From: an uncultured Pseudomonadota bacterium
Lineage (GTDB): Bacteria; Pseudomonadota; Gammaproteobacteria; Steroidobacterales; Steroidobacteraceae
Length of the DNA: 34,482 bases
Direction: 5' to 3'
NCBI GenBank assembly: GCA_903908265.1
Contig: CAIVRI010000030.1
Span: forward strand, 1-34,482
Shown here: piece by piece, positions 20,610 through 29,254 of the stretch
Layout of the letters: each line of letters begins with the position of its first letter
Position numbering within the stretch: position 1 is the first letter of the stretch
Position numbers and translations under genes: made by a program
Notes under the pieces: generated by a model
The model's input: the letters and a program-made list of their open reading frames with translations, nothing else
Told to the model about the DNA's origin: nothing
Databases searched by the model: none

Positions 20610-21412
20610 TGATTCCGGATCGCTCCATGCGCCTGGATGGACGCGTCGCGGTCGTCACGGGGGCCGCGGGCGGGATTGGCGCGGCCATCGCCCGCCAACT
20701 ATCCGCCCAGGGCGCCCAACTCACGCTCATGGACCGCACTGCCGAGATGCTCGAGCCGCTGGCGAGCGAAATAAGGTCTGCGGGCGGTCGCTCTCCCCTC
20801 GTGCTGGGGTGTGAACTGACGGATGAGAAGGCCATTCGTGACGCCGCCGAAAGCGCCGTCAACGCATTCGGTCAAATCGACATCCTGATCGCCAATGCAG
20901 GCCTGCTGCTGCCCAACGCGACGCTGGAGCAGACTCAAACGGCCGAATGGGATCTCACGATGAATGTGAATCTGAGGGCGCCGTTTCTCTGTGCGCGCTA
21001 CTTCGGCGCACCCATGCTGAAGGCAGGGAAAGGCGCAATCGTCGTCACCACCTCCATCGCTGCGCACGCTCCCAATACCACCGCCAGCTACGGCCCGAGC
21101 AAGGCAGGGCTGCTGGCATTGATGCGACAGATTTCCGTTGAGTGGGGCCCGCGCGGAGTGCGCGCCAATGCCATCAGTCCAGGCCTCGTCAGGACCCCGT
21201 TGTCGGCTCGGTTCTACGCGGACCCTGCGAGCGTCGCCCGCCGCATGGAAAGGGTTCCGCTGCGGCGCCCGTCAGAGCCGGAAGAGATCGCCTCAGTGAT
21301 CGGCTTCCTGGTGAGTGACGCAGCGTCCTACGTCAACGGCCAGGAATTCATCGTCGATGGCGGAATTCTCAACACCACGCTCAGTAGCTCCGCGCCCGTT
21401 CCCGCTCCATAG
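20606..21412 (+). CDS. Short-chain dehydrogenase/reductase 1
   Basis: NAD(P)-dependent alcohol/ketone oxidoreductase. The product is 268 aa with cofactor motif TGAAGGIG (18-25), NAG (97-99) and catalytic S150, Y162 and K166 (YGPSK). The C-terminus has the usual NAISPG and DGG segments. Its ATG overlaps the OYE stop (ATGA). The substrate is unknown. Confidence 0.93.
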   Translation: MMIPDRSMRLDGRVAVVTGAAGGIGAAIARQLSAQGAQLTLMDRTAEMLEPLASEIRSAGGRSPLVLGCELTDEKAIRDAAESAVNAFGQIDILIANAGLLLPNATLEQTQTAEWDLTMNVNLRAPFLCARYFGAPMLKAGKGAIVVTTSIAAHAPNTTASYGPSKAGLLALMRQISVEWGPRGVRANAISPGLVRTPLSARFYADPASVARRMERVPLRRPSEPEEIASVIGFLVSDAASYVNGQEFIVDGGILNTTLSSSAPVPAP

Positions 21413-21428
21413 CGCGATCGATCCCCCG

Positions 21429-23186
21429 ATGACTATCGCTGCCAACTCAGAAACTCCAACCGTCGATGTCATCGTCGTCGGGTCCGGCGCCGGCGGACTG
21501 GCAACCGCCGTTACGGCAGCGGCAAAGGGTCTGTCGGTCGTTGTGTTGGAGAAGGCAGCAGTCTTCGGCGGGACAACCGCTCGTTCGGGCGGTGTGTTGT
21601 GGGTACCCGGCAATGGGCATTTTCCCGACGGTCCGAGTCCCGCGGACGCCGACCCCGAGACCTACCTTCGTCACGAGGCCGGCAATGCATTCGACGCCGA
21701 CCGCGTGCGCGCCTTTCTGTCAGCAGCACCCCGGATGCTGGCGTTCATGGAAAGTGGCACCAGTGCGGTCCGGTTCATCCCCGCTCACGGATTCTCCGAC
21801 TATCACCCGCACGCCCCCGGTGCAGTGACAACGGGCCGGTCGATTGCCGCGGAACCCTACGACGGGACGTCGCTGGGCCGCGAAGTACAACGATTGCGGC
21901 CACCGCTCGCCGAGATCACCTTGCTGGGAATGATGCTCAATGCGAGCCAGGACGTGAAGCATTTGTTCAATGCGACACGCTCGGTCAAATCCTTCTGGCA
22001 TGTGGTCAAACTGGTGGGGCGCTACGGACGCGACCTGCTGATTCATCGCCGCGCCATGCGACTGACCAACGGCAATGCGCTGATCGCACGATTGGCCCGG
22101 TCGGCATTCGACCTGGGCGTGGAGATCCGCACAAGCGCATCCGTGACGCAGCTGACGCGGGCCGCGGATGGGCGGGTGACCGGCGTCGTTGTGAACCAGG
22201 CACAGCAGATCATCGCGCGCCGTGGCGTCGTGCTCGCTGCGGGAGGCTTCCCGCTGGACCAGAAGCGTCGGCGGTCCTTGTTTCCGCACGAGATTCAGGG
22301 CGGAGAGCATCTGAGCCCGGCAGCCGAGGGCAATACCGGGGACGGCATCGCGCTGGGTGAAGCTGCTGGAGCGAGTTTCCGTACTGACATCAGTAACGCA
22401 GCAGCGTGGATTCCGGTGTCCGTGATTCCCGACGCAAGGCAGCGTCGCGTGTTCCCTCACCTGATCGATCGTTACAAGCCCGGTGTCATCATGGTGAATC
22501 GGCTGGGGAATCGATTCACCAACGAGGCGGACTCCTACCACGATGTCGGTCAGGCCATGATCCGAGACCGTAAGCCGGGTGAGGAAGTCTTCGCATGGCT
22601 GGTGAGTGATCACCGCGCGATTCGAAAATACGGCCTTGGCTTTGCAAAACCGGCGCCGTTTCCGCTAAGCCCCTATGTCCGATCCGGCTATCTCAAAATG
22701 GGACGAACCATCCGCGAGCTCGCGACCACCATAGGCGTCGACGCGGACACCCTCGAGCGAACCCTCGAACATTTCAATACCGACGCCGCCCAGGGACAGG
22801 ACTCACAGTTTCATCGCGGTCAAAGCGCCTACAACCGATACTTGGGCGACGCCGAACACCGCCCCAATCCCTGCGTGGCCCCCCTGGCGACCGCACCCTT
22901 CTATGCCATCCGCCTGGTGCTCGGCGATCTGGGCACGTTTGCCGGGATGGCGACCGACCAACATGCACGCGTTCTGAAAGCAGATCGCTCGGTCATCCCA
23001 GGACTTTTCGCCGTCGGCAACGATGCCCTGAGCATCATGGGCGGCGGATATCCGGGCGGGGGCATTACCCTCGGGCCGGCCATGACCTTTGGCTTTCTGG
23101 CGGCCGAATACCTTGCCAACTCTTCCCCGGGCAATCACGTTGCCGGCCAACCCGCCCATCAGGAGTCTGAACATGTCGATCATTGA
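21429..23186 (+). CDS. FAD-dependent dehydrogenase, 3-ketosteroid-dehydrogenase (KstD)-like
   Basis: Flavoprotein of the FAD_binding_2 (fumarate reductase / KstD) family; relatives introduce or reduce double bonds in cyclic ketones. The product is 585 aa from ATG at 21429; the frame opens upstream inside the SDR gene. FAD motif GSGAGG at 18-23, FGGTTARSGG at 46-55, a KstD-type segment DYHPHAPGAVTTGRS and a C-terminal flavin-binding stretch YPGGGITLGPAMTFG. The resemblance to steroid dehydrogenases does not prove a steroid substrate. Gap of 16 bp to the SDR gene; the NIPSNAP gene overlaps its end by 14 bp. Confidence 0.88.
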   Translation: MTIAANSETPTVDVIVVGSGAGGLATAVTAAAKGLSVVVLEKAAVFGGTTARSGGVLWVPGNGHFPDGPSPADADPETYLRHEAGNAFDADRVRAFLSAAPRMLAFMESGTSAVRFIPAHGFSDYHPHAPGAVTTGRSIAAEPYDGTSLGREVQRLRPPLAEITLLGMMLNASQDVKHLFNATRSVKSFWHVVKLVGRYGRDLLIHRRAMRLTNGNALIARLARSAFDLGVEIRTSASVTQLTRAADGRVTGVVVNQAQQIIARRGVVLAAGGFPLDQKRRRSLFPHEIQGGEHLSPAAEGNTGDGIALGEAAGASFRTDISNAAAWIPVSVIPDARQRRVFPHLIDRYKPGVIMVNRLGNRFTNEADSYHDVGQAMIRDRKPGEEVFAWLVSDHRAIRKYGLGFAKPAPFPLSPYVRSGYLKMGRTIRELATTIGVDADTLERTLEHFNTDAAQGQDSQFHRGQSAYNRYLGDAEHRPNPCVAPLATAPFYAIRLVLGDLGTFAGMATDQHARVLKADRSVIPGLFAVGNDALSIMGGGYPGGGITLGPAMTFGFLAAEYLANSSPGNHVAGQPAHQESEHVDH

Positions 23187-23493
23187 ACAACGCATTTACA
23201 CGCTGAAGCCCGAATACGGGCCGGCCGACTACTTCACGCTCTACGACAAGGAGGCCCGTCAACTCCAGGTCGAGACATTGAAGGGCTTTGTCGGTTATTT
23301 CTCCAGCGAAGTCGGCACGCTCAATGCAGTCATCAGTCTGTGGAGCTATCCGGACTTTGAGACTCGACAGCAGCGCCGGGCCGCGTTGTCGAAGGAACCT
23401 CGGTGGCAGGCTTTTCTCACTCAAGTGCGTCCCATGCTGCAGAACATGGAAAACCGCCTATTAACTCCTGCCCCCTTCTCCCCCATTCAATAG
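23173..23493 (+). CDS. NIPSNAP-family small protein
   Basis: A 106-residue ferredoxin-like alpha/beta-barrel protein of the NIPSNAP family (MSIIEQRIYTLKPEYGPADY, then YFSSEVGTLNAVISLWSY). Family members often sit beside catabolic oxidoreductases, but no general reaction is established. The start ATG at 23173 lies inside the KstD-like gene, with AGGAG at 23161-23165 just upstream. Confidence 0.82.
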   Translation: MSIIEQRIYTLKPEYGPADYFTLYDKEARQLQVETLKGFVGYFSSEVGTLNAVISLWSYPDFETRQQRRAALSKEPRWQAFLTQVRPMLQNMENRLLTPAPFSPIQ

Positions 23494-23501
23494 GACGCCA
23501 C

Positions 23502-24350
23502 ATGTCGGCTCATCATGAACCACGAGTGATTCCATACGCGGGCGGGCGCATGTTGATTTTTGACTCTGCCACCTATGTGCAGGGTTATGTCCACGCGCAC
23601 CCGGATACCCACGGTGACTTGGTGATCAACGCCTCCTATTCGGGCGTGTTGTGCGCCAAGATGGTCATCGCGGCGAAGCCTCGATGCGTCATCGGGCTGG
23701 ACTGCGCGATCGGCAAGGACGGAGCCGGCGTTGCGGGACTCGCCTTTTATGAGGCGCTCGGAATACCCGCGGCAGCTGCCGACGTGATGACGGCGGAGAT
23801 GGGGAACGGCAACGATCTTTATGAAGAGGGCGTCATCAGTCGCGTCAATGAAGCGGCCGAACGCCTGGGGATCAAGCCGGGTCTTACCGTTAAAAACGCA
23901 GCGGCCGCCCTGCTGGATGGATCCCGTCAAGCGACTACATGGGACCCGGCTCGCCGTGAGGTGATCGAAACGGATCCGGCCACGGGCCGATCGATCGTCG
24001 CCACCGATTCAATCGCATTCGCCTTGCCGGAGGACCGGGACCGCAATGTCCTCTGCACGGCCGGTCACACCGGCCGGAGCGTGGTCGGATATTTCCGCGA
24101 CTATCGCCCCTGGGCCTTCATCTGCTCCGACGGCGGCGTCGGCAAGAACAACAGCGGCATCAGCGCGCTCGATGATGTCACTGGGGATGGCATTCCAGGT
24201 GCCTCGGTGGACGCGCTGACCGCGCGCATGGGCGATGGCCATAGCACCTACTTCGACGGCGTGATCAGCGCCGTCAACGCTCCAGCGGCCGCCAAGGGAG
24301 TGAAGGTGGGCCAAAGGGCTCGCGATGCCGCGAAGTTGCTCCTCAAGTAA
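23502..24350 (+). CDS. Unrecognised protein made of two internal repeats
   Basis: A 282-aa protein I cannot assign. It consists of two clearly related halves, residues about 39-138 and 181-281. They share the pattern GK-x3-G ... GIP-x-A-x2-D-x2-TA-x-MG-x-G-x3-Y-x2-GVIS-x-VN ... AA-x2-LL. Each half begins with a hydrophobic strand pair. Conserved acidic positions (D67 and D210; D94 and D237) and a histidine in GHTGRS could form an active site at the repeat interface. No signal peptide or membrane segment is visible. AGGA precedes the ATG, and it lies 8 bp after the NIPSNAP stop and 9 bp before a cupin gene, so it belongs to the catabolic operon. Confidence 0.8.
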   Translation: MSAHHEPRVIPYAGGRMLIFDSATYVQGYVHAHPDTHGDLVINASYSGVLCAKMVIAAKPRCVIGLDCAIGKDGAGVAGLAFYEALGIPAAAADVMTAEMGNGNDLYEEGVISRVNEAAERLGIKPGLTVKNAAAALLDGSRQATTWDPARREVIETDPATGRSIVATDSIAFALPEDRDRNVLCTAGHTGRSVVGYFRDYRPWAFICSDGGVGKNNSGISALDDVTGDGIPGASVDALTARMGDGHSTYFDGVISAVNAPAAAKGVKVGQRARDAAKLLLK

Positions 24351-24359
24351 GGAATCCAA

Positions 24360-24758
24360 ATGGCCAACACCCCCCACCTATCGCATGAACCCACGCTCGG
24401 CCCCCAGGAATCGCGCTATGTGAATCCGGACGATCTTCCGTGGAAGCCAACGCCTTCGCCCGGCATCGACATGAAAATTCTCATGCAGGACAAGGAGTCC
24501 GGACTGCTCACGGCCTTGTTTCGCTGGCAGCCAGGCGCCGTGCTTGCGCGCCATGAACACGTCGAGATCGAGCAGACCTGGGTGCTGGAGGGATCCATCG
24601 TCGATGAGGAAGGCGAAGCACTCGCTGGTCGTTACGTGTGGCGCCCCAAAGGCAATCAGCACCTGGCTCGATCGCCGCAAGGGGCCCTCGTGTTGTCGTT
24701 TTTCTTGAAGCCCAATCGGTTTCTGGACGGCGATCTCGCCGGCCGCGCCCTTGAATGA
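24360..24758 (+). CDS. Single-domain cupin, putative dioxygenase (copy 1)
   Basis: A 132-aa metal-binding cupin. Motif 1 supplies H65, H67 and E71 (RHEHVEIEQTWVLEG) and motif 2 supplies H101 (WRPKGNQH), so a full 3-His-1-Glu site is present. It resembles 2,4'-dihydroxyacetophenone-dioxygenase-like and ChrR-like cupins. Dioxygenolytic C-C cleavage is possible but unproven. AAGGA lies upstream. Its paralogue at 28853-29254 shares the DLPWKPTP/ELPWKPTP start and the FFLKPNRF segment. Confidence 0.85.
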   Translation: MANTPHLSHEPTLGPQESRYVNPDDLPWKPTPSPGIDMKILMQDKESGLLTALFRWQPGAVLARHEHVEIEQTWVLEGSIVDEEGEALAGRYVWRPKGNQHLARSPQGALVLSFFLKPNRFLDGDLAGRALE

Positions 24759-24810: not shown

Positions 24811-25386
24811 GTGAATGAGAAAGCCTCGACCAATGCCCCTGTGGGCGTACGGCGCGTCGTCACCGGCCACAATGCGCAAGGCCAGGCGGTAATACAGTCC
24901 GATGGACCCACGCCGACCCTGATCGTCAACCAAGCGTTGCCAGGTCTGATCTATCATGAGTTGTGGGAAATGAGCGCCGTGCCAGCACCCATTCCGCCCG
25001 AGGAAAAGGAACCCACGGATCACCCTCTCGTCCTCGCACCGCCGCGCGGCGGAGTGAGGATTCGCTTCAACGACATCCCACCGGAAGGGGAACACACCTC
25101 CCCAGAAACGGCCAAGAAGGTCTTTGAAAGCATCGGCGCCAAATCGGCTCATCACGGCGATGGCAAGCACGTCTTCATGCACAAGACCGAGACCGTCGAT
25201 TTCGCGATCGTCATGGAAGGCGAGATCTATCTCATCGTCGATGAAGGTGAGACATTGATCAAAACCGGAGAAGTCGTCATTCAGCGCGGGACCAACCATT
25301 CCTGGGCGAATCGCAGCGGCAAGAACTGTCGGCTGGCGTTCATCCTGGTCGACGGACAATTCGAAGGTCCGCTGGCGCACCGATAA
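24811..25386 (+). CDS. Cupin-domain protein (larger, distinct family)
   Basis: A 191-aa cupin that starts with GTG at 24811 after AAGGAG. The cupin core lies in the C-terminal half: FMHKTETVDFAIVMEG and GEVVIQRGTNHSWANRS. These keep two histidines and an acidic residue but not the canonical HxH, so metal binding may differ. Members of this group are often found near aromatic-compound degradation genes. It is not closely related to the other two island cupins. The exact role is unknown. Confidence 0.85.
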   Translation: MNEKASTNAPVGVRRVVTGHNAQGQAVIQSDGPTPTLIVNQALPGLIYHELWEMSAVPAPIPPEEKEPTDHPLVLAPPRGGVRIRFNDIPPEGEHTSPETAKKVFESIGAKSAHHGDGKHVFMHKTETVDFAIVMEGEIYLIVDEGETLIKTGEVVIQRGTNHSWANRSGKNCRLAFILVDGQFEGPLAHR

Positions 25387-25418: not shown

Positions 25419-26417
25419 ATGAAACTATCGACAGTGCCCAACGGGACGCCCGACGGCGAACTTTTCATCGTCGCGCGCGACAACGCCACGATGGTGTCCG
25501 CGACGGGTATCGCTCCAACGCTCCAGTCTGCGCTGGATCGCTGGAACGATGTGGCCCCCGCCTTGGCCCAACGCGCCGCTCAACTCAATGAGGGCAGTGC
25601 AAAAGGAGCGCTCGCGTTCCCACCTCCCGCGCTAAGCGCCCCGCTGCCGCGCGCCTGGCAGTGGCTCGATGGCTCTGCATTTCACAGTCATGGAGAACTC
25701 GCATCGCGGGTTTACGGCATCAATCCCCCTTCGCGCGTCCGTCCTCTGATGTATCAGGGATTGTCGAATCCCTTTCTGGGTCCCAATGACGACGTCGAAT
25801 TCACCACCGAAGATGACGGTATCGATTTCGAGGGCGAATTCGGTGTGATCGTCGATGAGGTTCCCATGGGCATCTCGGCGGCCGACGCAGCCCAGCATAT
25901 TCGGCTCGTCGTGCAGATCAATGACTGGTCGTTGCGCTTTATCGGTCCCGAAGAGATGAAGACGGGTTTTGGGTTCGTGCAAACCAAGCCCGCCTGCAGC
26001 ATGGCGCCCATTGCCGTCACTCCGGACGAACTCGGAACGGCATGGGAGAACTGTCGAATCGGGCTTGACCTTCACGTTGTGTGGAATGGCGCCTTGTTCG
26101 GCAAACCCAACGGACGAGAGATGGGCTTCGGCTTTCACGAATTGGTCGCGCATGCCGCGCGCACCCGGCGCCTGTGCGCCGGCACCATCATCGGTTCGGG
26201 GACGGTGGCGAATGCGACGTTTCGCGAAGTCGGATCTGCCTGTATTGCAGAACGTCGTGGCATGGAAAAGGGCGATCACGGCAACGAGCGGACGCCCTAT
26301 ATGAAGTTCGGCGATACCATCCGGATGGAAGCGCGCACCGCTGAGGGGCGGGCATTGCTGGGAGCCATCGACCAGAAAGTCGTGCGCGTCCGGACTGCGC
26401 GGGCTCCGTTCGTTTAA
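25419..26417 (+). CDS. Fumarylacetoacetate hydrolase (FAH) family protein 3
   Basis: A 332-aa FAH-fold enzyme and last gene of the long operon. Metal ligands are E138 and E140 in IDFEGEFGVIVDE and D169 in INDWSLR. The stretch EMKTGFGFVQTKPACSMAP and the GSGTVAN loop place it in the longer, fumarylacetoacetase-like branch, different from FAH1 and FAH2. It is likely a C-C hydrolase for a ring-fission product. GAGGA lies 8 nt upstream of the ATG. A 260-bp gap with a LysR box follows. Confidence 0.9.
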   Translation: MKLSTVPNGTPDGELFIVARDNATMVSATGIAPTLQSALDRWNDVAPALAQRAAQLNEGSAKGALAFPPPALSAPLPRAWQWLDGSAFHSHGELASRVYGINPPSRVRPLMYQGLSNPFLGPNDDVEFTTEDDGIDFEGEFGVIVDEVPMGISAADAAQHIRLVVQINDWSLRFIGPEEMKTGFGFVQTKPACSMAPIAVTPDELGTAWENCRIGLDLHVVWNGALFGKPNGREMGFGFHELVAHAARTRRLCAGTIIGSGTVANATFREVGSACIAERRGMEKGDHGNERTPYMKFGDTIRMEARTAEGRALLGAIDQKVVRVRTARAPFV

Positions 26418-28852: not shown

Positions 28853-29254
28853 ATGAACGCCGTTACACCGAACAATCCCAAGCATGCCGGACTGCCGCCA
28901 CTATTGAGTCGCTATAGCGTTGTGGACGAGCTCCCCTGGAAGCCGACGCCCGTCAAGGGCGTCGATATGAAAGTGCTGGTCGAGGACAAGCAGACGGGCA
29001 TGATGACTGCCCTGTTTCGCTGGGCGCCGGGCACATCGCTACCCATGCACGAGCACGTTGAAATCGAACAAAGCTGGGTGCTCGAAGGCGAATTCGAAGA
29101 CGACGAAGGTGTATATACCCAGGGGAATTTCGTTTGGCGGCCTGCCGGTCACCGGCACATTGCGCGATCACCCAAAGGAGCGCTGGTCCTGTGCTTCTTC
29201 CTTAAGCCAAATCGATTCGTCGGTGGGGAATTCGACGGCAAACTCCTCGATTAG
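28853..29254 (+). CDS. Single-domain cupin, putative dioxygenase (copy 2)
   Basis: A 133-aa paralogue of the cupin at 24360. The metal site is complete: H66, H68 and E72 in MHEHVEIEQSWVLEG and H102 in WRPAGHRH. A good GGAGG lies 11 nt upstream of the ATG. Its stop codon overlaps the convergent LysR gene by 4 bp. Confidence 0.86.
   Translation: MNAVTPNNPKHAGLPPLLSRYSVVDELPWKPTPVKGVDMKVLVEDKQTGMMTALFRWAPGTSLPMHEHVEIEQSWVLEGEFEDDEGVYTQGNFVWRPAGHRHIARSPKGALVLCFFLKPNRFVGGEFDGKLLD

What the first reader, a model, noticed from the sequence alone, without database searches (positions are those of the whole stretch)
23502..24350. Unrecognised two-repeat protein embedded in the catabolic operon
Residues about 39-138 and 181-281 align with each other, sharing GK-x3-G, GIP-x-A-x2-D, TA-x-MG-x-G and GVIS-x-VN. 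The gene is tightly spaced between NIPSNAP and cupin genes, so it is probably co-translated with the pathway. An internally duplicated fold with conserved aspartates could be a new enzyme class.
Basis: partly seen in the sequence, partly recalled or inferred. Interest (0 to 1): 0.6.

Follow-up and report, generated by a model that had tools for sequence, protein, structure and literature searches.

The report
Tandem-repeat protein in bacterial catabolic operons
This gene encodes a member of a widespread, unnamed and uncharacterised protein family, built from two copies of one small domain and found in gene clusters that break down organic compounds; it is probably an enzyme, but what it does is not known.

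Summary
The 282-residue protein at 23502-24350 is an internal duplication: 32 of 80 core residues are identical at a shift of 143; score 146 against a shuffled maximum of 57. The repeats are longer than described (about 16-139 and 163-281). NCBIfam has no match; Pfam gives sub-threshold DUF1805 and a short polymerase-type motif. The predicted fold resembles the DUF1805 structure 1qw2 best (Z 8.2 whole, 7.6 repeat 2 alone), so it is probably a distant DUF1805-like protein, a family without known function. Relatives occur in proteobacteria, actinobacteria and haloarchaea, as tandem and single-repeat forms. In the window's subfamily repeat 1 has lost the conserved His that repeat 2 keeps. The single form lies within 15 kb of a salicylyl-CoA 5-hydroxylase/oxidoreductase gene in 10 of 25 genomes, 0.14 expected. 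Best guess: an accessory tautomerase or isomerase of 1,3-dicarbonyl intermediates with one surviving site. Duplication and family are well supported; the DUF1805 link is likely; the activity is inference.

The parts
23502..24350 (+). gene of the two-repeat protein (282 aa, stop included)
23547..23918 (+). repeat 1 (residues 16-139); signature partly lost: Y46 for His, E99 for Arg, N102 for Asp
23988..24344 (+). repeat 2 (residues 163-281); signature kept; residues 159-282 fold alone with pLDDT 93.6, pTM 0.89
24006..24011 (+). D169-S170, just after strand 1 of repeat 2 (DS motif)
24063..24077 (+). G188-H189-T190-G191-R192, end of strand 2 (equivalent of SHGG)
24129..24158 (+). D210-GGVGKNNS-G219 loop after strand 3 (equivalent of NDAGxGKDxAG)
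24222..24236 (+). A241-R242-M243-G244-D245 loop after strand 4 (equivalent of ARIGD)
24258..24278 (+). G253-VISAV-N259, strand 5 motif
23173..23493 (+). NIPSNAP gene directly upstream (ATG start inferred inside ORF 23089-23493)
24360..24758 (+). Cupin_7 (ChrR-like cupin) gene directly downstream; homologue within the fetched stretch in 12 of 21 loci
21315..23186 (+). FAD_binding_2 gene, nearest solved relative 3-oxosteroid 1-dehydrogenase 7p18; homologue in 15 of 21 loci
25419..26417 (+). fumarylacetoacetate-hydrolase-type gene of the same cluster

Best explanation
The protein is a fused, pseudo-symmetric pair of a DUF1805-like alpha/beta domain. It belongs to an unnamed superfamily recognisable by the motifs DS, SHGG, NDAGxG, (A)RIGD and GVISxxN. 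Shown by computation: duplication, confident model, fold resemblance, motif conservation, loss of the motif in repeat 1, and presence in catabolic clusters. Inferred: the conserved residues follow the C-terminal ends of the strands, where alpha/beta enzymes usually carry their active site, so repeat 2 (H189 and D210 above all, with D169/S170, R242, D245 and S256/N259) carries a catalytic site, while repeat 1 has become structural or substrate-binding. Inferred further: the site enolises or isomerises a 1,3-dicarbonyl (beta-keto) intermediate so that the C-C cleaving or decarboxylating enzyme of the pathway can act on it; here the partners would be the FAH-type hydrolases and cupins.
For: Duplication. 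Confident models, pLDDT 89.3 whole and 93.6 for repeat 2. 1qw2 is the top VIA-align match of both: Z 8.2, rmsd 3.8, 93 aligned, next row 5.1; Z 7.6, rmsd 3.0, 76 aligned, next row 4.8. DUF1805 is matched by 16 of the 20 proteins of A1 at E <= 0.01, and one distant relative (L026) passes its cut-off, 31.7 against 29.5. H189 22/22 and 14/14, D210 22/22 and 14/14, R242 21/22 and 12/14 (window's subfamily, distant tandem set), while at the repeat 1 positions the window's subfamily has Y46 22/22 and E99 20/22 but the distant set H 11/14 and R 13/14. Single form: S13 and H31 17/17, D52 16/17, N101 17/17. Contexts in which a beta-keto or 1,3-dicarbonyl intermediate is plausible: a RuBisCO-like gene and a four-carbon acid sugar kinase directly downstream in the 3 haloarchaeal plasmid loci viewed (of 5 records), and OiaK/OiaX-like genes 1 to 5 kb away in L038 and L103; the ACMR-type enzyme within 15 kb in 10 of 25 single-form genomes; FAH, cupin or thiolase genes elsewhere. 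None of the 20 neighbouring proteins scanned hit a Pfam family named as tautomerase or isomerase.
Against: No enzyme activity is known to me for any member or for DUF1805. Foldseek gave no E below 0.001; 1qw2 was rank 25 for the whole model and not among the 50 rows shown for repeat 2. IMS is matched by more A1 members (18 of 20) than DUF1805. Similarity to two real DUF1805 proteins covers only the last 28-36 columns, hhalign probability 65% and 24%, and by eye they lack the His/Asp signature. In the single forms the Arg and Asp of ARIGD are kept in only 10 and 9 of 17 (counted by eye), so those two cannot be essential everywhere. Genomes with a full ACMR gene mostly lack the linkage (87 of 150 have it, 10 show it), and none of the 5 tandem-form genomes of that family shows ACMR or an OiaX-like gene within 15 kb. 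FAH-family members are themselves isomerases in some pathways (recalled), and the VOC, cupin or NIPSNAP proteins could equally be the isomerase.
Confidence: 0.28

Rival explanations
1. It is a hydrolase: it cleaves a C-C, thioester, lactone or enamine bond of a ring-opening intermediate, with H189/D210 activating water.
For: Same conserved residues. [quoted passage not shown] the single form lies within 15 kb of ACMR in 10 of 25 genomes.
Against: The cluster already has two FAH-type proteins and an amidohydrolase; no catalytic geometry could be tested; the kinase plus RuBisCO-like contexts need no obvious hydrolase.
Confidence: 0.25
2. It is a non-catalytic small-molecule-binding or scaffold protein of catabolic clusters (sensor, carrier or stabiliser).
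For: DUF1805 is listed without function in the passages seen; one of the two sites is degenerate, and the ARIGD Arg/Asp vary in single forms; single forms lie directly beside a Bug/TctC solute-binding-protein gene in 8 of 17 loci.
Against: H, D, S and N positions stay nearly invariant over very distant members, which is more typical of catalysis.
Confidence: 0.26
3. The DUF1805 resemblance is a coincidence of a common arrangement, and this is an unrelated family.
For: Z values near 8 can be reached by common arrangements (notes); sequence similarity is local; Foldseek does not list 1qw2 in its top 50 for repeat 2; Y-family polymerase palms match the same C-terminal piece.
Against: 1qw2 leads both VIA-align lists by about 3 Z units, and the same family appears independently in Pfam scans of 16 of 20 proteins and, weakly, over 56 positions of the 64-position profile in L024 and L027.
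Confidence: 0.25

Closest known systems
DUF1805 / PF08827 / COG3377 (YunC, Thermoplasma TA1206, PDB 1qw2)
   Same: Best VIA-align match; shared C-terminal beta-alpha-alpha motif; one distant tandem relative passes the Pfam cut-off.
   Different: Two domains in one chain; each repeat is about 120 aa against 64 profile positions; carries DS, SHGG and NDAGxG type motifs that the two DUF1805 proteins read here lack by eye; the window protein scores 26 against a cut-off of 29.5.
Unnamed single-repeat family (about 130 aa) in genomes of family f20 (unnamed in the tool)
   Same: Same core motifs; the tandem model mostly aligns its second repeat to it.
   Different: One domain per chain; different clusters (ACMR, enoyl-CoA hydratase, acyl-CoA dehydrogenase, Bug); ARIGD Arg and Asp kept in only 10 and 9 of 17.
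Unnamed tandem family near RuBisCO-like and acid-sugar-kinase genes in haloarchaea (L025, L028, L029) and L038
   Same: Two repeats of the same domain; haloarchaeal records 31-34% identical to the window protein.
   Different: Most members of the distant tandem set keep His and Arg in both repeats; kinase plus RuBisCO-like context.
Y-family DNA polymerase palm (PF00817 IMS)
   Same: A piece of about 30 residues matches in sequence and structure.
   Different: 28 of 148 profile positions only; no polymerase domain.

Membership tests
DUF1805 (PF08827) | Score over the Pfam gathering cut-off (29.5 bits) | tested here: not met
   Window protein 26 bits; relative L026 31.7; the others scanned below or without a match.
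DUF1805 (PF08827) | Fold of TA1206 (1qw2) | tested here: met
   Top VIA-align match of both models, Z 8.2 (93 of 102 aligned) and 7.6 (76 aligned), about 3 above the next row; near the level where common arrangements occur, and Foldseek E values are not significant.
DUF1805 (PF08827) | Sequence similarity along the whole domain | tested here: inconclusive
   hhalign covers 28-36 columns, probability 65% and 24%; L024 and L027 match 56 of 64 profile positions weakly.
Y-family polymerase (IMS, PF00817) | Complete palm domain | tested here: not met
   Only positions 31-58 of 148, although the score is 0.8 bits over the cut-off; Foldseek 30-49 columns.
Known tautomerase/isomerase families (such as 4-oxalocrotonate tautomerase or PrpF/GalD type) | Match to a Pfam or NCBIfam model | tested here: not met
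   No such model among hits up to E 5; functional analogy only.
Superfamily of this report (SHGG/NDAG) | DS, His of HGG type, D-x-G-x-G, R-x-G-D, S-x-x-N positions | tested here: met
   Repeat 2 carries D169 S170 H189 D210 G212 G214 R242 D245 S256 N259.
Superfamily of this report (SHGG/NDAG) | Enzyme activity | not testable with these tools
   No biochemical data seen; literature searches (30 of 96 papers listed).

The most novel reading that the evidence does not exclude
An undescribed enzyme superfamily with its own Asp-Ser/His/Asp signature acts on 1,3-dicarbonyl intermediates in ring-compound and acid-sugar catabolism of bacteria and haloarchaea. The window's branch is a fused pseudo-heterodimer in which one of two ancestral active sites was silenced, while single-domain and two-site versions survive elsewhere.
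Probability: 0.28. Interest if true: 0.62.

Novelty: new variant of a known kind. Interest (0 to 1): 0.42.

Why it matters
If the inference holds, a recurrent 'hypothetical protein' of several kinds of degradation cluster (ring compounds, salicylate or anthranilate, acid sugars) would receive a function, and the DUF1805 fold, whose structure was released in 2004 and which has no role in the papers seen here, would get a first testable activity. The single form beside ACMR gives a small test case with a partly known pathway.

Tried and rejected
Sequence search of solved structures with the protein and with alignments A1 and A2 gave nothing significant (best E 0.65, 0.053, 0.2). Foldseek with the whole model ranked NadN, SteA and IMPDH entries first, but at TM-scores of about 0.2 or less, so these were rejected. 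A type VII CRISPR chain (Z 5.1), SteA, asparaginase, response regulators and Rossmann dehydrogenases (Z 4-5) were taken as common arrangement. The viral library gave no match with E below 0.1. The IMS Pfam hit was rejected as a local motif. A reading as the three-repeat cyanuric-acid-hydrolase ('Toblerone') fold, recalled from memory, was dropped because there are two repeats and no Pfam hit. The single form used as a query found only 4 plasmid records, all tandem forms already seen.

I considered SDR association as a functional clue (one SDR cluster present in 12 of 17 locus groups), but SDRs are common and no background was computed, so it carries little weight. The repeat tree places the two repeats of the window's subfamily together, hinting at a separate duplication, but it has 120 columns for 89 rows and flagged long branches, so I draw no conclusion. 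Neighbours in high-GC loci came from a home-made ORF picker and from BLAST against a small reference set, so absent neighbours are not proven absent; only some were named by Pfam or NCBIfam. OiaK/OiaX matches are below the NCBIfam cut-offs, so they are relatives, not proven orthologues; in the 150 genomes none passes the OiaX cut-off. The single-form/OiaX linkage rests on 1 of 25 genomes. A base-composition test for horizontal transfer was planned and not done.

The co-location statistic treats the 25 genomes as independent and uses rounded genome sizes and places copied by hand; several genomes are related, so the P value (3e-17) is not to be taken literally. The 25 single forms leave out 5 tandem genomes and 4 fragment-like rows (G530, G560, G619 and G536:C11). 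Alignment A1 used 19 of the 21 loci (L010 and L011, near copies of L008, left out); A2 used 31 of the 40 repeats of A1's proteins. One search used 36 tandem proteins and 17 of the 25 single ones (those whose neighbourhoods were fetched).

Full report
THE OBSERVATION. The gene at 23502-24350 encodes 282 residues. Local alignment of its halves scores 146, against a mean of 29.4 and a maximum of 57 in 2000 shuffles. At a fixed shift of 143, 32 of 80 core positions are identical. The gene starts 8 nt behind the NIPSNAP ORF and ends 9 nt before a Cupin_7 gene; AGGA precedes each start.

SURROUNDINGS. Pfam names the neighbours as VOC, amidohydrolase 2, MFS, FAH, old-yellow-enzyme type, SDR, FAD_binding_2, NIPSNAP, [target], Cupin_7, Cupin_2, FAH, VOC, FAD_binding_3, Cupin_7 and a LysR regulator. 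The FAD_binding_2 protein is closest among solved structures to a 3-oxosteroid 1-dehydrogenase, E 2.6e-98. The cluster looks like degradation of a cyclic compound; the substrate is not identified.

IS IT KNOWN? NCBIfam has no match up to E 5. Pfam gives DUF1805 at 26 bits (cut-off 29.5) and IMS at 24 (cut-off 23.2), the best stretches being short C-terminal pieces of a repeat. Over the 20 proteins of A1, DUF1805 is matched by 16 and IMS by 18 at E <= 0.01. Of 8 further relatives, L024 and L027 match 56 positions of DUF1805 weakly, L026 passes the cut-off, and three (the two single forms and L025) match nothing up to E 1. Papers: DUF1805 occurs in 2 papers of the library. In the passages read, one lists YunC as uncharacterised and one lists COG3377/DUF1805 with PDB 1QW2 and no function. 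A search with PF08827, TA1206, 1QW2 and YunC found 96 papers, of which 30 were listed, mostly author initials or unrelated by title; COG3377 is in 2. No functional study was seen in these listings. Of 13 plasmid records with relatives, 12 annotate them as 'hypothetical protein' and one has no annotation.

FOLD. AlphaFold2 gave pLDDT 89.3 and pTM 0.61 for the whole protein, and 93.6 and 0.89 for repeat 2 with 31 repeats in its alignment. Foldseek found no E below 0.001 for either; 1qw2 stood at rank 25 with probability 0.90 and rmsd 1.7 over 58 columns for the whole model and was not among the 50 rows shown for repeat 2. VIA-align put 1qw2 first both times: Z 8.2, rmsd 3.8, 93 aligned, next 5.1; Z 7.6, rmsd 3.0, 76 aligned, next 4.8. 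Together with the independent Pfam hint I take a distant relation to DUF1805 as likely (about 0.7). Against it: comparison with two real DUF1805 proteins of the same phylum covers only 28-36 C-terminal columns.

FAMILY. 21 loci were found in one genome scan, in Comamonadaceae, Paraburkholderia xenovorans LB400, Hyphomicrobiales and Actinobacteria, 50-71% identical. 13 plasmid records were found by tblastn, the 5 haloarchaeal ones at 31-34%. Among 98 genomes of the own genus, family and order only the own one has it; in 398 genomes drawn from the phylum 6 match, the own one included. In 150 genomes of family f20, 33 matched the single-repeat query and 30 the tandem alignment; five carry the tandem form, one an orthologue at E 1.5e-143. 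The own genome has no other copy.

SIGNATURE. 36 tandem and 17 single proteins were aligned. Repeat 2 in the window's subfamily (22 proteins): D169 19 (N in 3), S170 22, H189 22, D210 22, R242 21, D245 22, S256 21, N259 22. In the distant set (14): H 14, D210 14, R 12, D245 11. Repeat 1 of the window's subfamily has Y46 in 22, E99 in 20 and N102 in 20 of 22, where the distant set has H 11, R 13, D 11 of 14. Single forms: S13, H31, H80 and N101 17/17, D52 16/17, D12 15/17; but the Arg and Asp of ARIGD are kept in only 10 and 9 of 17 (by eye). The simplest reading is a two-site tandem ancestor with the second site kept and the first lost in the window's branch; the repeat tree does not settle it.

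CONTEXT OF RELATIVES. Cupin_7 homologues lie in 12 of 21 loci and the FAD_binding_2 homologue in 15 of 21; G593 repeats NIPSNAP, target, Cupin_7, FAD_binding_2, OYE and SDR. In the 3 haloarchaeal plasmid loci viewed the target precedes a RuBisCO-like gene and a four-carbon acid sugar kinase; a similar pair lies about 1 kb from the target in L038 and 4 to 5 kb from the single-form gene in L103, matching OiaK and OiaX models well below the curated cut-offs. The single form of L040 sits with a bifunctional salicylyl-CoA 5-hydroxylase/oxidoreductase, the type called ACMR here (1342.8 bits, cut-off 1078). Of 25 single-form genomes 19 have this enzyme over the cut-off and 10 have it within 15 kb, 0.14 expected; 87 of all 150 genomes have the enzyme. 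The 5 tandem genomes show neither linkage.

MECHANISM. A beta-keto or 1,3-dicarbonyl intermediate is plausible in these contexts (pathway knowledge, recalled: ACMR products, decarboxylation of a 3-oxo acid by OiaX, FAH substrates). [quoted passage not shown] I therefore propose an accessory tautomerase or isomerase using H189 and D210, with hydrolase and binding-protein readings close behind. Steps shown: duplication, model, fold resemblance, signature, asymmetry, linkage of the single form. Steps inferred: catalysis, substrate class, role of repeat 1.

VERDICT. A real, unnamed, widespread family with a likely distant relation to a known fold and no known function: a new variant of a known kind.

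Noticed in passing
window 24249-24344 (residues 250-281) and 23829-23915: The C-terminal beta-alpha-alpha piece of each repeat resembles the palm of Y-family DNA polymerases (repeat 2: 43% identity over 30 columns, rmsd 1.6 to human pol eta; Pfam IMS hit in 18 of 20 proteins).
   Followed up: partly
window 24360-24758 and 28853-29254: Two Cupin_7 (ChrR-like) paralogues flank the FAH/VOC/FAD_binding_3 part of the cluster; a Cupin_2 protein lies at 24811-25386.
   Followed up: no
window 21315-23186: The FAD_binding_2 protein is a 3-ketosteroid-1-dehydrogenase relative (7p18, E 2.6e-98), suggesting an alicyclic or steroid-like ketone in the pathway.
   Followed up: partly
L040, L090, L091, L092, L097, L098, L100, L102: Single-repeat genes lie directly beside a Bug/TctC-type solute-binding protein gene in 8 of 17 loci, some overlapping by a few bases.
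   Followed up: partly
L019 around 12566: A second, opposite-strand copy of the target (47% identity) lies about 2 kb from the first in Conexibacter.
   Followed up: no
L014 and L018-L020: No Cupin_7 homologue was found near these tandem forms; L018-L020 sit among acyl-CoA dehydrogenase and SDR homologues and L014 beside two SDR genes, so the family is not tied to one pathway.
   Followed up: no
L018: The contig is labelled as a Bifidobacterium breve MAG although its neighbours are acyl-CoA catabolism genes; the label may be wrong and was not checked.
   Followed up: no
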